From Pichia kudriavzevii (lineage: Eukaryota > Ascomycota > Pichiomycetes > Pichiales > Pichiaceae), in the NCBI RefSeq assembly GCF_003054445.1, contig NC_042510.1:1225139-1289138 (forward strand): a stretch of 64,000 nt of DNA, given 5' to 3'. Below the pieces are notes generated by a model. The model was not told where the DNA came from. It ran no database searches and saw nothing but the letters and a program-made list of their open reading frames with translations. The position numbers and the translations under genes are program-made. This document shows, one piece after another, positions 3,301 to 64,000 of this stretch (positions are counted from its first letter, which is position 1; each line of letters opens with the position of its first letter).

Positions 3301-4501
3301 CTACTCAGATACATTCCCACGCTTGGCATTCCGTGCTTTAACCTTCTTGACCTCTTCAAGGACTTCCAATACATACGCCTTGTTTCTCTCGTACGGATCA
3401 ACGAGCTTCTCCTTGACCTCCTCCAAATTTAGCTCCTCAAGGGCTTCCTTGTTGGCCCTATAGACCCGCTTCTTAACAGCCAACCGAAACGCATCCTCCT
3501 CCCCTCTCTCTAAGAGCCTCATCTCACGTATCTTGTCTCCCTGTCTCTTGCTGAACTTCATCAAGCCAACATCGTGCTCACCGCAAGACATGTCAGAGAC
3601 ATCCCGCAACTTCTCAAAACTCTCATTCGGATCTTCAACTCCAAACTCAAAACACTTGTTGTCCGAAACCCACTCCTCCCTGATGGCCTCGTAGATCTTG
3701 CTACCATGTCCTTTCCCCTGCATGTGCGGCATAACAACAACCTGCGAGATCCGGCCCCTATACATCCACTCCCCATTACGATTCTCCCTAAGGAGCCAGT
3801 ACTTATAAGTAGTCACAAACGAAACCAGCCCCCCGTTCCTCTTATACGTAACATAGAGATTCCACCTCTCATCGGGCTCGATATACGACGCCCCCTCAAT
3901 GTACAACAAGGCCAAAATCTGCATTCGTTTCAGCAACTTCGATCCAACACCGTCTAAGACAGACAACTTATAAATATCATAGTCGTCTCCATCGAGTGTA
4001 TAAGAGTGACAAACATACTCTTGGCCAATATCGAAATTCTCACTCTCAATGGAATCAACCCATGCAGCTTCGTCACTTTTGATGAAATCATCAGGGGGTA
4101 AAAACTCCTGCATCTTCACCATAACGTCGTCCTTTATATTGTCGAGCTTCTCGGTGTACCTCACATTCAAGAATGGCTTCATTGATTTCCCGTCAAAGGC
4201 AAGGTCGATTCTCAAGTCCTTGTATCCGAAAATCTGTTCACTCTCTCCGAAAATCGGATAGGTGTACAACGGATGGGTGGTGGTGGCCTTTTCGCCGTCG
4301 GCTATATGCTGTTAGTACTCGGATTATAACTGCAAAGATAAATGGGGACAAACTCAAATCGAGTAGATCAGAGTGGGGTGGAGTAGAGTAGAATAGGACA
4401 GAGTAAGAAATAAAAAAAAATTTGGTTTGGTGATACATACTAATTGATATGAAAAGGGCGTCGTTAGCTGAAACAGTCCACTCCTCGTGTTCAACAGACA
4501 T
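3301..4501 (-). CDS. HAT1: Histone acetyltransferase type B catalytic subunit, spliced
   Basis: Hat1 acetylates newly made histone H4 (Lys12/Lys5) with its partner Hat2. Two exons are inferred: 4441-4501 and 3301-4301, giving 353 residues. Exon 1 encodes MSVEHEEWTVSANDALFISI, matching the family opening that contains WTxSANEAL. It ends at a GTATGT donor (4440-4435); a TACTAAC branch point lies at 4317-4311 and the acceptor TATAG ends at 4302. The join restores one frame into LYTYPIFGESEQIFGYKDL, a strongly conserved Hat1 block. The acetyl-CoA loop QGKGHG lies around residue 225. Without splicing, the second exon lacks an ATG start. The splice model is inferred from motifs and homology, not transcript data. 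Confidence 0.92.
4302..4440 (-). other. Spliceosomal intron of HAT1
   Basis: A 139-base intron with a perfect GTATGT donor, a perfect TACTAAC branch point and a TATAG acceptor nine bases beyond the branch box. It interrupts a codon after its first base (phase 1). The very short branch-to-acceptor distance is typical of some budding yeasts. Confidence 0.88.
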
Positions 4502-4903: not shown

Positions 4904-4974
<71 letters not shown>

Positions 4975-5892
4975 TGTTGAATTTGAACGTGCTCTTTGAC
5001 GACCTCGTTCCACCTCAAGATCAAGAACTTCACCGTAGTGTAGAAGGTCTGTACTGAATTCCGTCCGTCCAAGAAACAACTTTAAATTGAAAGCCACCGC
5101 ATCCTTGGTAACCCGTCTCTTTGTACATGTAGACACGTAGTTCTCTCCAGTCAACCGGATCTCCTCGAGACTGATTGAAACAACGTCATCAACAACAACC
5201 CGTCTTGGTCTTTTGCGGCTACTGCCAGCATCACCAACGATCTTGGCAGTTGTGGCAACACTACCCTTGGCCTCGACTGTATTACGCTCCTCTAGTTCAC
5301 ACGTTACTTGTGAGAAATCCAAGTCGTCCAACAGGTTGAAATTACCAAACTCTAACGCCAACGGGACATCATGGTCGCCGCCGTCTCTCTCCCTCCTCAC
5401 AGTACCGACAGTAACCGCTTGACTACCTTCACCGCGTTCGCCACCTCCACCGACAACCTCTTCAACGGCCCCATCCGCATCAAAGACAAACCCAACCTCA
5501 CAACCATCCCAACCCTGACTCTCCGACATCACATCCAAGTGCTCCTCTTGCAAACTCTCTACTCGTTCCACCAACCCCTGTGTAATGTCAAATCGAGGAT
5601 CATCTCGTAGAATCTTCACCGTCTTCACTGTATCTCTCTTCACTGCAACCGGCGCCATCTGACGCATCATCTGTCGACACACGTGGGCGTCTCTCCAACT
5701 TGCCAAACATTCCCTCTTGTACACCAACACCAACCCGTACATTAAATTGCCAACTCTTCTCAAAGGCAGTTCCTTAGAGCCACTAATGAGCAAACAACAT
5801 CTGCAAATATCAACCTTGGCTTTTCTTCTCTCCCCCAACGTGGCCAACAACCATAGGGCCTTCAACTCATAGTCGTCTCCCATAGATTCCAT
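4531..5892 (-). CDS. REC8: Kleisin, probably meiotic cohesin subunit Rec8
   Basis: A 453-residue alpha-kleisin. Kleisins close the Smc1-Smc3 ring; Rec8 is the meiosis form, Scc1/Mcd1 the mitotic one. The N-terminal kleisin domain is clear (ALWLLATLG near residue 14, then LPLRRVGNLMYGLVLVYKRE). The C-terminal winged helix is clear too (REAVLVFQHLLMEATRGKVRVWQ near residue 410). The middle is diverged and acidic; a basic RKRPRR lies mid-protein and an 11-12 unit Arg-Ser run at 4905-4974. I prefer Rec8 because of the short length and the GLVLVYKR motif, but Scc1 is possible. The start at 5892 lies only 20 bases after the stop of the upstream same-strand gene. The C-terminal tail after the winged helix is a Thr-Lys/Thr-Asn repeat. 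Confidence 0.75.
4905..4974 (-). repeat. Coding 6-bp repeat (Arg-Ser) in the REC8-like gene
   Basis: About 11.7 perfect copies of TTGACC on the plus strand, read on the minus strand as alternating Ser and Arg. The unit is a multiple of three, so length change would not shift the frame. Confidence 0.9.
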
Positions 5893-22521: not shown

Positions 22522-24552
22522 ATGTCCAATGCCTTTTCTGCATTAGATAGGCTGAAAAATAGAACGAATTCGTCATCCGAGGATGTAAAGTCAAGCAATC
22601 GGAAATTACCAAGATCCACTTCTGCAAATAGTGTATTTGCAAGCATTCCGATGCCTAGAGCCAGTTCAAGCGAGAAAAGCCAGGAAAGCAACAAACCCTT
22701 GGAGTCGAGAGTGAAGCCTTCAAAACTGAGTTCTGTTTTACGTGCTCAATCCAAGTTTTCTGGCCAAACTTCGGTCGTTTCTTCTAAATCAACAAAATCG
22801 CTAACCAGATCTGCGATCAGCAAACTCCCGCTAACAAACAGAACACTCACAGGAAGGAGCAATCGACTACAGAGAACATTACCATGGGCAACCACGTCGC
22901 TAATAGATGTGAGGTCAAAAGTCAAGCTGAAAGAACATCATATCGAGGACAAAACAAAGTATAAACCAAAGTATGCGTCAGCCGAGCAATTATCAATAGT
23001 CAGCAAAAAGGAGGATCCTAAAGAATATTCTTATCTACAAAGCATTGACTCGAATTACACTGAGGTTGATTTAAGTGATGAGCAAAAACATGTTCTTGAT
23101 TTGATATTGAACAAGAGGAAAAATGTGTTTTTTACAGGTTCTGCAGGAACTGGTAAGTCTCTTCTTTTAAGAGTTATTATAGGCAAGTTGAAAACCAGAT
23201 ATGGCATATCAAATATAGGTATATGTGCACCCACGGGATTGGCAGCAGCTAATATTGGTGGTAAAACAATTCAAAGACTTTTCAGTATTGGATTGGGTAA
23301 GGATCCAGCTGATGTATTGCTGAATAGGATCAAGAAAAACATGGAAAAGTATATGGTTTGGAGGAGAATGGTTGTTTTGATTGTCGATGAAGTCAGTATG
23401 CTTGAGGCTGACTTGTTGGATAAACTGAATTATCTTGCGAAAAAGATTAAAAGAAACGACCAGCCGTTTGGCGGTATCCAAGTGATTATGTCTGGGGACT
23501 TCTTGCAGTTACCGCCTGTTACGAGGGATCCTACCTATGTGAATTACTGTTTCAAATCTAAATCTTGGAATGAAATTATAACGGAAAAGATTGTCTTATC
23601 CCAGGTTTTCAGACAGCAGGGGGACACGGAATTAGTGGACATCCTAAATGCGCTAAGAATAGGAAGAGTGGACTATCACATCGAGAGTAAACTAAGGAAA
23701 CTATCTAGACCTCTGACATATGATGATGGTATTCAAGCAACCGAATTGTTCCCCACGAGAAACGAAGTGGAACGTGCCAACCTTCAGCAACTTGAACAGT
23801 TACAGGGCCCGGAACTTACTTTCCCCTGTAAAGATATCTCTACCTATGGTGCCCCTATCGACGAAAGAGTGATGAGGAATTTTGACAACTTGATGTGTTC
23901 GCAAACCTTGAAACTAAAGCCAGGAGCACAAGTGATGTTGATAAAGAATGGCCTCCACGAGGATTTGGTGAATGGTGAGTTGGGAATAGTAGAAGGCTTT
24001 GTTACAAAGCCAATCTATCAAAATTTCATTGCAAGATTCGGCAGTGAGTCTATCGAAGCTAGGTCCAAACTTTTGAGGAAGATCAGTATGATATTATTGA
24101 ATAAAAAACATATCACTAACGAACCAGAAAATGATGATTTGTCCTTAGTTGATCCACTGACGGCAGAAGTAATCACCCAAATTATTAGGAGTTTTGATCC
24201 TTCGGATAACCTTTTCCCAGTTGTTACGTTTCAGAAAATGAATGGTTCAAAACTGAACTTTTTTGTTGAGCCAACAGACTTTTTCTACGAAGCTACACCT
24301 GGTAAGGATGCTGAATTTATTCGACAGCAGCTTCCAATTATTCTATCATGGGCAATGTCCATTCATAAATCGCAAGGTCAAACCCTGCAGAGAGTCAAGG
24401 TCGACCTTCGTAAGGTTTTTGAGAAAGGCCAGCTCTATGTTGCTATAAGTAGGTGTGTTTCCTCCAACGGTTTGCAGGTCTTGAACTTTGACCGCCGCAA
24501 GGTATTCGTAGATGAAGAAGTCATTTCCTTTTATAGATCTCTTTCCCAGTAG
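22522..24552 (+). CDS. PIF1: Pif1-family 5'-3' DNA helicase
   Basis: A 676-residue superfamily 1B helicase. Pif1 unwinds G-quadruplexes, strips telomerase from telomeres and helps maintain mitochondrial DNA; its relative Rrm3 aids fork passage. The first 180 residues are Ser/Lys-rich and unconserved. The helicase core has Walker A GSAGTGKS at 206-213, Walker B IVDEVSML near 288, GDFLQLPPV just after, FRQQ, and the late HKSQGQTL and YVAISRC motifs. The Pif1 signature region lies between motifs II and III. Length is below S. cerevisiae Pif1 (859), mostly in the N terminus. Whether it is the Pif1 or Rrm3 orthologue needs a tree. Confidence 0.93.
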   Translation: MSNAFSALDRLKNRTNSSSEDVKSSNRKLPRSTSANSVFASIPMPRASSSEKSQESNKPLESRVKPSKLSSVLRAQSKFSGQTSVVSSKSTKSLTRSAISKLPLTNRTLTGRSNRLQRTLPWATTSLIDVRSKVKLKEHHIEDKTKYKPKYASAEQLSIVSKKEDPKEYSYLQSIDSNYTEVDLSDEQKHVLDLILNKRKNVFFTGSAGTGKSLLLRVIIGKLKTRYGISNIGICAPTGLAAANIGGKTIQRLFSIGLGKDPADVLLNRIKKNMEKYMVWRRMVVLIVDEVSMLEADLLDKLNYLAKKIKRNDQPFGGIQVIMSGDFLQLPPVTRDPTYVNYCFKSKSWNEIITEKIVLSQVFRQQGDTELVDILNALRIGRVDYHIESKLRKLSRPLTYDDGIQATELFPTRNEVERANLQQLEQLQGPELTFPCKDISTYGAPIDERVMRNFDNLMCSQTLKLKPGAQVMLIKNGLHEDLVNGELGIVEGFVTKPIYQNFIARFGSESIEARSKLLRKISMILLNKKHITNEPENDDLSLVDPLTAEVITQIIRSFDPSDNLFPVVTFQKMNGSKLNFFVEPTDFFYEATPGKDAEFIRQQLPIILSWAMSIHKSQGQTLQRVKVDLRKVFEKGQLYVAISRCVSSNGLQVLNFDRRKVFVDEEVISFYRSLSQ

Positions 24553-43822: not shown

Positions 43823-43882
43823 CAGGACAAAGTACAAAGGACAAAGGACAAAAGACAAAGGACAAAGGACAAAGGACAAAGG
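43823..43882. repeat. GGACAAA short tandem repeat
   Basis: About eight copies of the 7-base unit GGACAAA, some with one substitution (GTACAAA, AGACAAA). It sits between the two aminotransferase copies, just upstream of copy A's promoter. Confidence 0.85.
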
Positions 43883-43960
43883 ACTAAGAAGACTATTAAA
43901 GGTGGGACAAGGGAGAGTGTATTTAGAGGAGTATGTACTTCTTATACAGCAACGGCTCGT

Positions 43961-53109: not shown

Positions 53110-54681
53110 TCACTTCAACAGTTCAGCAGGCTTGCACTTCCCGCTAACGAGAGACCTGAATGCCTTGATTAAAGCCGGTGTTGACGCATCAACTTCTGAC
53201 GATCTCCATCTATCCCTTTGTAAGGGGTTTGTTCTCCCTTCTGGCGCCAGACTGAACAGCGGGTTCAGTAGCTGCTCCTCAGCTTTATCCAAAAAGAAGC
53301 CTTGGAACCGGTGAGGAACTTCGGGCTCTTTTCTCTTTGTGCGGTATTCATCCCATTGTATTTGGTCCTTCAGATCGGGTAGTCTTTTAGAACCAGAAAA
53401 AACACCTGCAATTGCAGCTGCACTGTATTCCATCCCGTGAAACATCAGTCCAAAGGTCGGAATCCCTGCAGTGGCAAACGAATTGTCTATGGTGGAAAAG
53501 GTGTAGAGATACAGGTTACCTATTTTAGATACTGGACTATTGTTCTCATGATGATCGTAGATCTTGACCAGCTCATCTTCAGGGTTCAAAAATGGGAAAT
53601 GGTAGTGGTAACCAGTGGATAGGATAACATGGTCATATTTGCCAACCGTGCCATCTTCAAACATAACTTCACCTGTTTCGTGTAAATACTTGGAAATCCT
53701 AGGTTTGAATTGAACATTCGACACCATCTTGAAGCAATCGACGATCCATGGATAGACACTCTCGGATCTCTGGGAAACGGTAACACCCTTAGCAACTGGT
53801 GATAAGTATTGCAACAAATCTGCACTGCTTGTACCAGACCCACAAAGTAGAATTTTGGAATTTCTGTAATCGTTTGCATCCCTATACGATTTGCTGTGCT
53901 TGACCACATTGGGATATTTCCTAACGAATTCGTTCAGACCTTCCGTTTTAGGTATAAAGGGAACATTACAGTGCCCATTTGCTGCAACAACAGCATCAAA
54001 TTCCTCGGTGTACCACTGTTCAACTTTGGTACTTGGAGTTTTCTCTCTGATTGTCAGCAGCCATTTCTCCTGTCCATTTTCTTTGACAACCTTCTCAATT
54101 CTTTCCACTCCAGAATTGACACGGAAATGCCTCCTCAAATCGTATCTCTCAATCACCCTCTCCAGATAATCGGTAATATCATCCATTGATACTAACGGCT
54201 CCAAATATCTGCCTCTACTGAGGTTCTCCATTGGCGTATAAGAAAACCTCATATACTTCTCTGGAACATTTGTAAACAGATCTTTGTATGCGGCATTTCT
54301 ATGCCACCGATGCTCCTCTGACAGAGTCTTCTCACTTAACCTGACAAAAGGATGTTCTCTGGTTGCACTCTGCAACGATTTCCTGTTTGGTATTGACGGA
54401 CGCTCGTATATTCCATCCGGCTTATTGTAAGTACCTCTATTCAGAGCATGCAGAGGCGGTAATTGGGCATCGGGCTCTTTAAAGAAATTCCAAACGCCTC
54501 CTAGTTTGGAGTTTTGCTCAAAGCAAACCACCTTGTCGAACGCTGTAGTTACGGGTTTCACACAGGTCTCAAGGAGAGAGCGGCCGTTCTGAGAAACATG
54601 CACAAGCTCGTTCACACAGGCAATACCTGCAGGACCCCCTCCTATAACGGCAACGGATTTAATGACCTTGTTGATGCTCAT
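53110..54681 (-). CDS. Flavin-containing monooxygenase, copy A
   Basis: A 523-residue FAD- and NADPH-dependent monooxygenase of the FMO family. Yeast Fmo1 oxidises thiols and helps set ER redox balance; other relatives act on amines, sulfides or 2-oxo acids. The FAD motif GGGPAG is at 14-19 and LGGVWNF follows. The FMO-type stretch before the NADPH site reads VVKHSKSYRD. The NADPH motif is GSGTSSADLLQYL. The later ATG-like motif VILSTGYHYHFPFL is conserved. A partial membrane anchor is not evident. It is the paralogue of copy B, with a Dal5-type permease between them. Substrate cannot be named. Confidence 0.88.
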   Translation of the reverse strand: MSINKVIKSVAVIGGGPAGIACVNELVHVSQNGRSLLETCVKPVTTAFDKVVCFEQNSKLGGVWNFFKEPDAQLPPLHALNRGTYNKPDGIYERPSIPNRKSLQSATREHPFVRLSEKTLSEEHRWHRNAAYKDLFTNVPEKYMRFSYTPMENLSRGRYLEPLVSMDDITDYLERVIERYDLRRHFRVNSGVERIEKVVKENGQEKWLLTIREKTPSTKVEQWYTEEFDAVVAANGHCNVPFIPKTEGLNEFVRKYPNVVKHSKSYRDANDYRNSKILLCGSGTSSADLLQYLSPVAKGVTVSQRSESVYPWIVDCFKMVSNVQFKPRISKYLHETGEVMFEDGTVGKYDHVILSTGYHYHFPFLNPEDELVKIYDHHENNSPVSKIGNLYLYTFSTIDNSFATAGIPTFGLMFHGMEYSAAAIAGVFSGSKRLPDLKDQIQWDEYRTKRKEPEVPHRFQGFFLDKAEEQLLNPLFSLAPEGRTNPLQRDRWRSSEVDASTPALIKAFRSLVSGKCKPAELLK

Positions 54682-57509: not shown

Positions 57510-59123
57510 TCACAGTGTTGATTCGGCATACCGAATTGATGGATCGAATTGATTCAAATCTCCAGTAGCAAACTTGTAAAACAGGTCGGGAAGCACACGA
57601 TGTGCCTTTTCAACGTCTCCTTCATTAACATATGGAAGAAAATTGAACCTATTCTTCGGAGCAAGGTCGTAGCATTGTCCGATGAAATCCCTGATACTGC
57701 TCTCTGTATAAGTCTGAAACCCCCATTTCTTACCCTCTATCCTATCCTCTAGAAACTTTTTCTGCATTTCCACCGAAGGCAACTTACTTGCTCCTGACCA
57801 AATACCAGCTATGGCAACAGCGTTTGCCTCCGATGTCAGAAAAAACAACGGATTTTGAACAAGACCAGTGTGACAAAGAGTGGGATCTTCAATAGTGAAG
57901 GTATAAAGATATAAGTTGTCCACCTTGGTCAACGCATAATTCGGATTGCCGCTAAAACCTGAGCTGAGTGAAATGTAATGTCTATCCCTGTTTTCAGGAA
58001 TATCTAAGAACGGATAGCTGAGGTGATACCCAGTACAAAAAATAATCTTATCAAAATCAGACTCTGAGGTGCCGTCCTCAAACTCAACAGTTGTGCCAGC
58101 TATTTTGGAAATCCTTCCATGTTTGATCCATCGAATTGCGTCATCTGCAAACACCTTCTCCACCCAGTCTTGTTTCTGTTTCTCTAGCTCTCCCGACTCT
58201 GCATTATTTGATGCATGCTTGCTGTTGCTTGAAATGTGTAATTCGGCGATTGGAATTAGATACTGCGAGAGGTCAATTCCACTGATGTTACTTCCGACAA
58301 TCAAGACCTTTTTGTTCCGTAATCCAGCAGAACTTCTAAAAGATTTGGCATGCATAAGAACATTAGGATTCTGCCTATGAAACGCTTGTAAACCCTCGAT
58401 TTTGGGATAGAAAGGAAAATTGAACCTCCCTGTGGAAATCACAACAGCATCGAAAGTCTCAGTGTAAACGATCCCCGAGTTGTCTTTCGGATCAAATTTC
58501 AGCACAGATATATACCACTTGTCGCCCTTCTTATAGAGCTTCTCAACTGTTGAATTGAATCTGATGTGTTTTCCTAAATCGTACCTTTTCACGTAATCGG
58601 CAATGTACCTAAAAACATTTTGATGTGTGGCAAAGGGAGTGTATACTGACGAGTTCTTATCAATCTTAAGCGGCTCACCAAAACTAGTTGAAAACCTCAT
58701 CAGAAAGTTGGGAATGTTGGTAAACAAATTGTCATAGACGGCGCTGTTATTCCACCTCTTATCAAAGTTTTCGTTGAGTGGAATCTTCACAGGTTTCTCC
58801 AGGGTAGCTGATTCGACCTTGTCATCAGTAAGATCCACCAAATGCGGTCTTAATGATTGCGGCTTGGAATAGTCACTGGCGTCCTCTGGAAAGGCTGGAT
58901 CGGTGTCCTTGGTGTAGTTCCACACACCACCAATACTATCATTCTGTTCAAAAACTGTTATCTCCTCAAATGCAGGATTAGCAGGGAGAATTCCATTGGA
59001 TGTTGGGGATACAATGGTACTCGATCCATCCGATGCTGTGTGTAAAAGCTCATTCAACGTAGTCAGCCCGCCAGGACCCGCTCCGATGATTGCAATCTTC
59101 TTGATACTATTTACTCTTGTCAT
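57510..59123 (-). CDS. Flavin-containing monooxygenase, copy B
   Basis: A 537-residue FMO paralogue of copy A. The FAD motif is GAGPGGL (14-20), followed by IGGVWNYT. The pre-NADPH stretch reads VLMHAKSFRS. The NADPH-site motif is VGSNISGIDLSQYL, in which the second glycine of the usual GxGxxG is Asn. The VVISTGRFNFPFYPKIEG and FCTGYHLSYPFL blocks are normal. Compared with copy A it carries extra residues between about 300 and 330. The Asn change might alter cofactor binding, but activity cannot be judged. The upstream region holds two near-identical 16-base elements. Confidence 0.87.
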   Translation of the reverse strand: MTRVNSIKKIAIIGAGPGGLTTLNELLHTASDGSSTIVSPTSNGILPANPAFEEITVFEQNDSIGGVWNYTKDTDPAFPEDASDYSKPQSLRPHLVDLTDDKVESATLEKPVKIPLNENFDKRWNNSAVYDNLFTNIPNFLMRFSTSFGEPLKIDKNSSVYTPFATHQNVFRYIADYVKRYDLGKHIRFNSTVEKLYKKGDKWYISVLKFDPKDNSGIVYTETFDAVVISTGRFNFPFYPKIEGLQAFHRQNPNVLMHAKSFRSSAGLRNKKVLIVGSNISGIDLSQYLIPIAELHISSNSKHASNNAESGELEKQKQDWVEKVFADDAIRWIKHGRISKIAGTTVEFEDGTSESDFDKIIFCTGYHLSYPFLDIPENRDRHYISLSSGFSGNPNYALTKVDNLYLYTFTIEDPTLCHTGLVQNPLFFLTSEANAVAIAGIWSGASKLPSVEMQKKFLEDRIEGKKWGFQTYTESSIRDFIGQCYDLAPKNRFNFLPYVNEGDVEKAHRVLPDLFYKFATGDLNQFDPSIRYAESTL

Positions 59124-61414: not shown

Positions 61415-63376
61415 TGGTTTTATCACTAGAAAAGCTACCTTCACGACAAGATGAGCTGTCTGTATAGGAGAAGAAAAGACATTTGAAAGTTATAGACCTG
61501 CAAATTCAGCAAAAGGAAGGAACTGACGTTCACTTAAAAAAAATTGTTGTCAAAAAAAAAAGAAAAAAAAATAGGATCCTGAAAATTGAGGTACATTCAG
61601 ATAAGAGAAAACTTAAATACTGTGAGAAGAAAAAAAAAAGAAACGAAAAGCTGTATAATAGAAACTGCAAATAAACATGAGTTGGTTCTCCATATTTGGT
61701 ACACTAGGGAGAGCTCTTGCATTACGCTCATGTTTATATTCGGCCCAGAGATAAGCAGGCCTATCTTGTCGACTTGGAAAAAACCTGTTTTTTTTTTTGC
61801 TTTTTTCTGAAACGGTGAAACCTCTTTTGAGGTGTTAGTCCAAATACCTCAGTTCTCCCAGCATTTTTATAGGCAGTTTACCGTAACGCAACACACCAGC
61901 ATTGTTTCAGCACTTTGTACTACCATCAGCATCCCCAATTTAACAGAGCGGAACCTAGGGGAGGGGAGAGGCAGAACCTTTCAATTGAGTGTAATAGAAT
62001 GGAGCCGCTTGTTTATATCCGTTTAGATCCTTGTATCGCCGCCTTCCGCGAGAACGGCACGATTTTCAGATTGTCAACAACCTTTCAAAACAGGATCCAC
62101 AAGACGCCCACTCTTTCGTATCTTTAGACTTTTCCTTACATCACTAGGATGATCTGGAGCGTGTCATGATATCTCCAAGACACGCAAAGACAAACTTTTT
62201 GTTGAACAATTCAAAGAAGAAAAACACAGATGGTGCAACAAAACATTAGAGCTAAGGAGCTATATAAGAAAAAATCACTAGTAGATGTGCCGTGCGAATA
62301 GATGGGCGGCATCAATGTAGTTTGCCACGGCTTGATGATGCCTTTTTGGCTCATTTCTGCATTCTCCTCTACATGGTGTGGAAGTGAGAAATCGATTTTT
62401 TCTTTCCTTGAACAGCTGTGTTACATTATGAACAAGAGGCTTGGCATGAACGTGCAATATGAATAAACGATCTTCGAGGCATATGAGACTGAAGTGTGAG
62501 AAGGTCCTTCTCTGTGAAAACGATATCTAATAGATGGTATTCTGCTTTGCCAGAGGCGTCATCACAATAGTTTCCTGTATGCAGCAGATATCCAAACACA
62601 CAGAAATGTTAGAGTACATACATTCAAGGGTTGTATGTCGAGGTGGGGTTTCCCATGTATGCTAACAGCAGAACAGAAATTAAAGAGCACATCCGGTTAA
62701 ACATGAGTCTGGCTAAACTGCTACAACGCTTACTATGTGGTTTATGGAGGAAGCTAGAGTTGGTAATGGATAGGAGAAATGACTGTAGTTTGTCTGGATG
62801 TTCAGCATATTGATTCTACTTGCATATATTCCTGCAAGCATTGTCCGACATATTCAGAATTCGTGTGGTTAGTAGCGATACCTGGTCTCTGTTATCAAGC
62901 AGAGGCAATGCGAGAACAAAAAAGTCCATTTGTGGGGGCACACCATGAAACTTGAAGTCCATACCACACCCAGCAATAATGTGATTTCCAATTAGTTCTG
63001 CTTGCGGTTCTCGAACCAGTGCCGGTTGGATTTTTACGCGGTGTCTTTTTCCACTGGACCAAGAGCGCAAGCAATTTTTTTCCAAAATTGTAGGAGACCT
63101 CATCAGCAGATTTTGGGTACTCTGTTACTGGTTGTTTTAGTTTGCTGGTTGTTATTTGCACTCCAGCTATCTGTTTGTATTGATCAAGGAACTATCTTTT
63201 ATCTGATATTTATATTTCTGACAAATTGTATCTTGGGAGTGTTTTTTGTTCAAAAACGTTTAGTAAAAGTTTTCATGCAAAAATTAGAAGAAAGTAGAAA
63301 AATAATTAATAATTTATTAGTTGAAGTTTGATACTTTAGAATTCATCTGTAAGAAATCATGAAGAAAATGATCAGA

Positions 63377-63478
63377 GGAATTTGTTTCCAACATTAGTGT
63401 ATCTACAACTGCTATCGCCAAAGTAGTGTTCTTACAAACCAGGTAGAGTTATTATTACAGGGAATTTGTATCCAACAT
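63377..63478. repeat. 18-bp direct repeat pair in the subtelomere
   Basis: GGAATTTGTTTCCAACAT at 63377-63394 recurs as GGAATTTGTATCCAACAT at 63461-63478. One mismatch, spacing 84 bases. Sequence between is unrelated. Confidence 0.85.
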
Positions 63479-63530
63479 GAAACATGTAATTTCACTATAT
63501 TATGAGCCTACAACAGATACCCCTCGAGAA

Positions 63531-63545
63531 ACAATATGAACTAGG
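63531..63545 (+). repeat. Isolated telomere-unit fragment
   Basis: The 15 bases ACAATATGAACTAGG match the telomeric unit exactly across a unit boundary. The match stops where the unit would continue with AGCGAGG. It lies 75 bases before the first array copy. Confidence 0.8.
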
Positions 63546-63620
63546 TAATTAAGAAGTCAGTCTATTAAATAAAAAACAAGTCCATTAGTGGCAATGAGGC
63601 TAAATGGATTTAATACGGCA

Positions 63621-64000
63621 AACTAGGAGCGAGGTGTGTGTTACAATATGAACTAGGAGCGAGGTGTGTTACAATATGAACTAGGAGCGAGGGACAATAT
63701 GAACTAGGAGCGAGGTGTGTTACAATATGAACTAGGAGCGAGGTGTGTTACAATATGAACTAGGAGCGAGGTGTGTTACAATATGAACTAGGAGCGAGGT
63801 GTGTTACAATATGAACTAGGAGCGAGGTGTGTTACAATATGAACTAGGAGCGAGGTGTGTTACAATATGAACTAGGAGCGAGGTGTGTTACAATATGAAC
63901 TAGGAGCGAGGTGTGTTACAATATGAACTAGGAGCGAGGTGTGTTACAATATGAACTAGGAGCGAGGTGTGTTACAATATGAACTAGGAGCGAGGTGTGT
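63621..64000 (+). repeat. Telomeric tandem array, 28-bp unit
   Basis: Thirteen complete units and one partial run to the window end. Units begin (AACTAGGAGC) at 63621, 63651, 63679, 63702, 63730 and then every 28 bases. The unit contains GAGCGAGGTGTGTTACAA. From 63702 all units shown are identical; the first spacings are 30, 28 and 23 bases. The plus strand carries the TG-containing strand toward the end, as expected for the 3' telomere strand. Long, uniform units of 20-30 bases are known telomeres of Candida and Kluyveromyces yeasts. I infer that this is the chromosome's right telomere. Confidence 0.9.

What the first reader, a model, noticed from the sequence alone, without database searches (positions are those of the whole stretch)
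63621..64000. Telomere with a long 28-bp unit
The window ends in a perfect 28-base tandem array whose TG-rich strand points to the end. Seen directly: unit length, copy number and polarity. Known: several Saccharomycotina yeasts have 16-26 base uniform telomere repeats copied from one long telomerase RNA template. Inferred: this species has a template of about 28 nt plus an overlap. The unit differs from those of C. albicans and K. lactis that I remember, though GGTGTG is shared, a possible Rap1-type binding core.
Basis: partly seen in the sequence, partly recalled or inferred. Interest (0 to 1): 0.7.

Follow-up and report, generated by a model that had tools for sequence, protein, structure and literature searches.

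The report
Known 28-bp yeast telomere repeat
The window ends at a chromosome end of the yeast Pichia kudriavzevii (Candida krusei), whose long 28-letter telomere repeat is already published; what is added here is the one place in its genome that could be the RNA template for copying that repeat.

Summary
Bases 63621-64000 are a tandem array of AACTAGGAGCGAGGTGTGTTACAATATG, G-rich strand outward, at the end of contig C5. It is not quite perfect: 11 of 13 complete copies are exact, one is 2 bases longer, one 5 shorter. The array closes 6 of 10 contig ends. Contig lengths and the repeat identify Pichia kudriavzevii CBS573, where this telomere is already in print: PMC5592916 (2017) and PMC6053246 (2018), the latter placing or inferring rDNA at the other four ends.

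It is the best telomerase RNA candidate; my six paper searches showed none described for this species. TERT, Est1 and two Rap1 genes are present. Structural support is mixed: a possible boundary helix and an intron-like 3' signal, but no canonical Sm site, significant pseudoknot or Rfam match. Verdict: an ordinary, known telomere, plus a testable RNA gene.

The parts
63621..64000 (+). Telomere array, 28-bp unit AACTAGGAGCGAGGTGTGTTACAATATG, 13 complete copies and a 19-base partial copy; G-rich strand runs 5'->3' to the end of the contig
63621..63650 (+). First copy, 2 bases longer than the unit (GTGTGTG)
   Evidence: read; dropped by the segment filter of the script
63679..63701 (+). Third copy, 5 bases short within GCGAGGTGTGTT
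62411..63620 (.). Subtelomeric block shared with ends 3L, 4L and 4R (95-97% identity to this end); not found in the last 3 kb of 2L and 5L
   Evidence: blastn of end sequences; start is where the match to 4L begins
63531..63545 (+). 15-base telomeric remnant ACAATATGAACTAGG inside the subtelomeric block, 75 bases before the array
   Evidence: read; also seen at 4L and 4R

Best explanation
The array is the right telomere of chromosome 5 of Pichia kudriavzevii CBS573. Shown: array, polarity, presence at six of ten contig ends, genes for TERT, Est1 and two Rap1 proteins. Inferred: telomerase adds the unit by copying an RNA template of up to 37 nt, CTCCTAGTTCATATTGTAACACACCTCGCTCCTAGTT, made from the plus strand of C5:217549-217585. 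A 3' end in ...AACTAGGAG pairs with the 3' copy of CTCCTAGTT, is extended by 28 nt to the 5' end of the template, and so again ends in AACTAGGAG; it then moves back for the next round. Irregular copies would be slips in the first dozen bases copied after such a move. The double-stranded repeat is probably coated by Rap1B through a core around GAGCGAGGTGTG.
For: Terminal arrays at 6 of 10 contig ends. Same telomere reported for this assembly and for strains 81-B-5 and NCYC 4488. Two 14-mer searches that together cover every circular permutation of the unit find, outside the ends, only one complete unit, at C5:217549-217585, and it carries exactly the short direct repeat expected of a template. 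TERT domain E 2.1e-31 in an open frame, Est1 E 1.4e-18, Rap1 DNA-binding domain at two loci. All eight irregular copies keep AACTAGGA and ACAATATG and differ only in the 12 bases between, naive chance 0.0011. At 3L a copy of the shared subtelomeric block is cut at ...GAGG and continues TGTGTTACAATATG, in register with the unit.
Against: No RNA data: transcription of the C5 locus is not shown. No Rfam family reaches its cut-off there. No canonical Sm site RAU4-6GR between template and next gene, only GATTTGG at L031:4715. The pseudoknot search is no better than chance (34 of 100 shuffles as good) and the 405 nt after the template fold no better than shuffles (z -1.05). Three shorter telomere-like stretches of 26, 25 and 19 nt lie elsewhere in the genome, so the C5 site could in principle be the longest of such remnants. 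Part of one contig end is masked and could not be searched; the search tool warns that its hit counts are lower bounds.
Confidence: 0.93

Rival explanations
1. The C5:217549-217585 stretch is not the telomerase RNA template but an interstitial scrap of telomere, captured at a repaired break, like the three shorter ones elsewhere; the real RNA gene is elsewhere or in unassembled sequence.
For: Stretches of 26, 25 and 19 nt identical to part of the unit exist at C1:2813147, C4:1299756 and C2:436354 region. Sm site, pseudoknot and Rfam tests give no positive support.
Against: The other three are all shorter than one unit, so none could template a 28-nt repeat; only C5 has a unit plus direct repeat. 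The C5 site lies in 2098 bp between ORFs of 180 aa or more, longer than 31 of 32 such gaps in the window, and has an intron-like 5' splice site and branch point downstream on the predicted strand.
Confidence: 0.13
2. The array is an internal satellite or an assembly artefact placed at contig ends.
For: Last bases of some ends depart from the unit (for example 5L, 4L, 3L), as expected of raw contig tips.
Against: Six ends, constant polarity, different flanking sequence at 2L and 5L; independent assemblies of three strains report it (passages).
Confidence: 0.01
3. Telomeres here are kept mainly by recombination, with the array spread among ends, rather than by telomerase.
For: Four ends share a subtelomeric block at 93-98% identity, which shows exchange between ends at some time.
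Against: TERT and Est1 have open frames; 2L and 5L carry the array without the block; irregular copies cluster in one part of the unit.
Confidence: 0.04

Closest known systems
Telomere of Pichia kudriavzevii CBS573 as published (PMC6053246; passages seen)
   Same: Same genome: unit TTACAATATGAACTAGGAGCGAGGTGTG is the same 28-mer in another phase, at the same six ends; the paper already calls it long relative to other yeasts
   Different: Nothing for the telomere itself; the word telomerase does not occur in that paper's main text, so the template locus is not treated there
Long telomere repeats of Tetrapisispora (PMC8211666; passages seen)
   Different: Other family (Saccharomycetaceae) and a dual annealing register from sub-repeats; here one 28-nt register dominates
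Putative telomere repeat labelled PICME in PMC6510891 (Table 1 passage)
   Same: TAGAACTAGGTGTGCGGGGTATAATAG shares GAACTAGG and a TATAAT/CAATAT-like part; also bound by Rap1B in competition (++)
   Different: Unit and core differ; the species name Pichia membranifaciens for this label is my reading
Telomerase RNAs of Hansenula (Ogataea) polymorpha and Candida species
   Same: Template with terminal direct repeat; [quoted passage not shown]
   Different: No sequence comparison was possible: no relatives were searchable, and the H. polymorpha paper is not held

Membership tests
Saccharomycotina telomere with long uniform repeat | Tandem array at chromosome ends | tested here: met
   6 of 10 contig ends; other four: three without array, one masked
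Saccharomycotina telomere with long uniform repeat | G-rich strand runs 5'->3' outward at each arrayed end | tested here: met
   Minus-strand hits at the left ends 2L, 3L, 4L, 5L and plus-strand at 4R, 5R
Saccharomycotina telomere with long uniform repeat | Repeat encoded by a telomerase RNA template longer than one unit | tested here: met
   37-nt match at C5:217549-217585, by sequence only
Saccharomycotina telomere with long uniform repeat | Bound by Rap1 or another Myb-type protein | not testable with these tools
   Two Rap1 genes present; in vitro binding of the H. polymorpha Rap1B is published
Yeast telomerase RNA gene (C5 locus) | Only template-like place in the genome | tested here: met
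   14-mer searches: 1 internal place of 74 hits and 4 of 78; of these only C5 reaches a full unit; masked sequence not covered
Yeast telomerase RNA gene (C5 locus) | Non-coding stretch large enough for about 1 kb or more of RNA | tested here: met
   2098 bp between ORFs; one 107-aa ORF on the other strand without a Pfam match
Yeast telomerase RNA gene (C5 locus) | Template boundary helix just 5' of the template | tested here: inconclusive
   L031:4450-4548 z -2.11, 5 of 200 shuffles as good; -1.77 in a second run, and the window at 4451 (-1.83) is the strongest of 20 windows
Yeast telomerase RNA gene (C5 locus) | Sm site near the 3' end | tested here: not met
   No RAU4-6GR on the plus strand between template and next gene; one GATTTGG at L031:4715
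Yeast telomerase RNA gene (C5 locus) | Triple-helix pseudoknot | tested here: inconclusive
   Home-made search; 34 of 100 shuffles score as well
Yeast telomerase RNA gene (C5 locus) | Splice-type signals for 3' end cleavage, as in several fungi | tested here: inconclusive
   GTATGT at L031:5563, TACTAAC at 5635, no AG for 84 bases; 0.0025 in 4000 simulations, chosen after looking; may instead be a 5' UTR intron of the next gene
Yeast telomerase RNA gene (C5 locus) | Match to a curated RNA family | tested here: not met
   No Rfam family at its cut-off in L031; two chance-level matches to unrelated families
Yeast telomerase RNA gene (C5 locus) | Transcribed and bound by TERT | not testable with these tools
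   No RNA data at hand

The most novel reading that the evidence does not exclude
C5 of about 217-218.6 kb is the telomerase RNA gene of P. kudriavzevii, with a 37-nt template, and its 3' end is made by a halted splicing reaction: a perfect TACTAAC branch site 72 bases after a GTATGT 5' splice site, followed by 84 bases without any AG, would allow cleavage but hinder the second step, as described for Schizosaccharomyces pombe.
Probability: 0.4. Interest if true: 0.45.

Novelty: already known. Interest (0 to 1): 0.3.

Why it matters
The telomere itself is textbook for this species. If right, it gives a direct handle on how a 28-nt repeat is copied faithfully with a 9-nt realignment, and on whether 3' end formation by halted splicing reaches this branch of budding yeasts.

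Tried and rejected
Rfam on the C5 locus: nothing relevant. Rfam on four contig-end stretches: no match at cut-off, so I did not confirm rDNA there myself; that rests on PMC6053246. Pseudoknot search: not better than chance. Fold of 405 nt after the template: z -1.05. Sm site: none canonical. Idea that the telomere core is a common Rap1 promoter site in this genome: GCGAGGTGTG has only 5 non-terminal places, one being the template and two lying in the near-unit stretches, so this exact 10-mer is not a widespread promoter element; looser motifs were not tested. Look-ups of the H. polymorpha telomerase RNA paper and of a 2021 survey of yeast telomeres failed, as neither is held. No relatives of this genome were searchable, so conservation of the RNA could not be tested.

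Caveats on counts: the script cuts at ACAATATG, starts after the first cut of each end and drops segments over 60 bases (three 'gap' rows: 4L, 4R, 5R) and the last partial copies; it therefore shows 65 exact and 8 other segments where one search shows 67 exact terminal copies. Of the 8, one (4L) is an exact copy with 7 junction bases in front. The lengthened first copy of the window was in a dropped row and was read by eye.

Full report
Observation. The window ends in a 28-bp tandem array, 63621-64000. Of 13 complete copies 11 are exact; the first has 2 extra bases and the third lacks 5; a 19-base partial copy ends the contig. The strand pointing to the end has 9 G and 3 C per unit. The window is C5:1225139-1289138 of a 10.79-Mb genome in 5 contigs, and C5 is 1289138 bases long.

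Other ends. The exact 28-mer occurs 68 times: 8 at 2L, 2 at 3L, 20 at 4L, 9 at 4R, 17 at 5L, 11 at 5R, and once inside C5 (the tool calls its counts lower bounds). All terminal copies have the G-rich strand outward. The remaining four of ten ends show none: three read without an array, one masked. The reversed control pattern gives 0.

Identity and prior print. Contigs C3, C4, C5 (2541747, 1383544, 1289138) equal chromosomes 3, 4, 5 of P. kudriavzevii CBS573 (2.542, 1.384, 1.289 Mb) in PMC6053246, Table 1 (passages); C1 and C2 here are about 10 kb shorter than in that table. The identification rests on lengths and on the repeat; no marker gene was used. That paper gives the 28-bp telomere at the same six ends, calls it long relative to other yeasts, and has rDNA at 1L, 1R, 2R and by inference 3R. 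PMC5592916 (2017, passages) gave the repeat for strain 81-B-5 at five scaffold ends, and PMC12424327 (2025, passages) for NCYC 4488. PMC6510891 (passages) used it in binding assays: H. polymorpha Rap1B binds with Kd 0.27 nM, Rap1A does not. So the telomere is known. Its length is not unique either: Tetrapisispora has 28-nt units (PMC8211666, passages).

Template. A template for a 28-nt repeat must hold some circular permutation of the whole unit. Any such 28-mer contains at least one of the two 14-mers AACTAGGAGCGAGG and TGTGTTACAATATG. The first has one non-terminal place of 74 hits, C5:217572; the second has four of 78: C1:2813150, C2:436354, C4:1299759 and C5:217558. Extended base by base, those on C1, C4 and C2 match the unit over 26, 25 and 19 nt (read); the C5 place matches over 37 nt, AACTAGGAGCGAGGTGTGTTACAATATGAACTAGGAG, i.e. 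one unit plus a 9-nt direct repeat. With up to 3 mismatches over a 24-mer the only further non-terminal hits are the same C4 and C1 sites. The predicted RNA runs along the plus strand of C5.

Setting of the C5 locus. It lies in 2098 bp between a 180-aa ORF without Pfam match, next to a REC102-like gene, and an aminotransferase gene. In the window, none of 33 gaps between ORFs of 150 aa or more reaches 2000 bp, and 1 of 32 does at a cut-off of 180 aa and 1 of 30 at 200 aa. The 99 nt just 5' of the template fold with z -2.11 (5 of 200 shuffles as good); a second run gave -1.77, and the window at that place was the strongest of 20. This is weak support for a boundary helix. About 980 nt after the template lies GTATGT (C5:218563), then TACTAAC (C5:218635), then 84 bases without AG; GTATGT 30-120 bases before TACTAAC arose in 0.0025 of 4000 Markov simulations, and with an AG-free tail in none. 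I chose this test after seeing the motifs. Genome-wide the pair with 60-89 bases between occurs 46 times against 16 in the reversed control, so it is an intron mark here; it may belong to a 5' UTR intron of the next gene. Against: no canonical Sm site, no significant pseudoknot, no significant fold downstream, no Rfam match.

Proteins. TERT RNA-binding domain at C2:989988, E 2.1e-31; the 853-aa ORF matches solved TERT structures (best 6zdp, E 1.1e-45) and shows the reverse-transcriptase motifs FDVQNAYDSL and RLMDDF by eye. Est1 at C2:1437224, E 1.4e-18. Rap1 DNA-binding domain at C4:833820, E 6.1e-21 (903 aa), and C2:2467184, E 2.5e-8 (749 aa); both match Rap1 structure 1ign. Two Rap1 genes fit the duplication reported for this group (PMC6510891).

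Irregular copies. Seven shortened internal copies and the lengthened first copy of the window all keep AACTAGGA and ACAATATG; every change falls in the 12 bases GCGAGGTGTGTT. A naive chance for eight of eight is 0.0011, post hoc. In the template model these 12 bases are among the first copied after realignment, so slips there are expected; replication slippage at TGTGTG would also explain some of them. At 3L the shared subtelomeric block is cut at ...GGCAATGAGG and goes on TGTGTTACAATATG, whereas 4L, 4R and 5R go on CTAAATGG: it looks like telomere addition on a broken end whose last bases fit the template.

Was the RNA gene already described? Six paper searches over open-licence PubMed Central texts showed none for this species. 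PMC6115765 (passages) reports that a BLAST survey of 185 genomes found new telomerase RNAs outside Saccharomycetaceae only in Ogataea parapolymorpha. Papers in closed journals, preprints and supplements were not searched.

Verdict. The telomere is real and already known.

Noticed in passing
G000 C1:2813147, C4:1299756, C2:436354 (L042, L044, L043): Interstitial stretches of 26, 25 and 19 nt identical to part of the telomere unit, each between ORFs: about 0.4 kb ahead of a KRI1-like ORF, about 20 bp ahead of a PWWP-domain ORF and 0.33 kb ahead of an APS-kinase ORF. Captured telomere scraps or protein-binding sites; undecided.
   Followed up: partly
3L (L034), compared with 4L, 4R, 5R: Shared subtelomeric block is truncated at GAGG and followed directly by TGTGTTACAATATG, like a chromosome end healed by telomerase.
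   Followed up: partly
2L (L035) and 5L (L032): Within the fetched 3 kb these two ends lack the subtelomeric block of the other four; at 2L a tRNA-Gly gene lies about 100 bp from the array.
   Followed up: partly
1R and 2R (L045, L047): The last 3 kb of the two contig ends without array match each other at 98.8% over 2859 bp.
   Followed up: no
window 22522-24552: PIF1-like helicase gene, E 3e-41, a family known to act at telomeres (recalled); its place on the same arm is presumably coincidence.
   Followed up: no
window 53110-54681 and 57510-59123: Two FMO-like flavin monooxygenase genes near the chromosome end, with a transporter gene between them.
   Followed up: no
window 43824-43888 and 4904-4974: Short tandem arrays of 7-bp (AGGACAA) and 6-bp (CTTGAC) units.
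   Followed up: no
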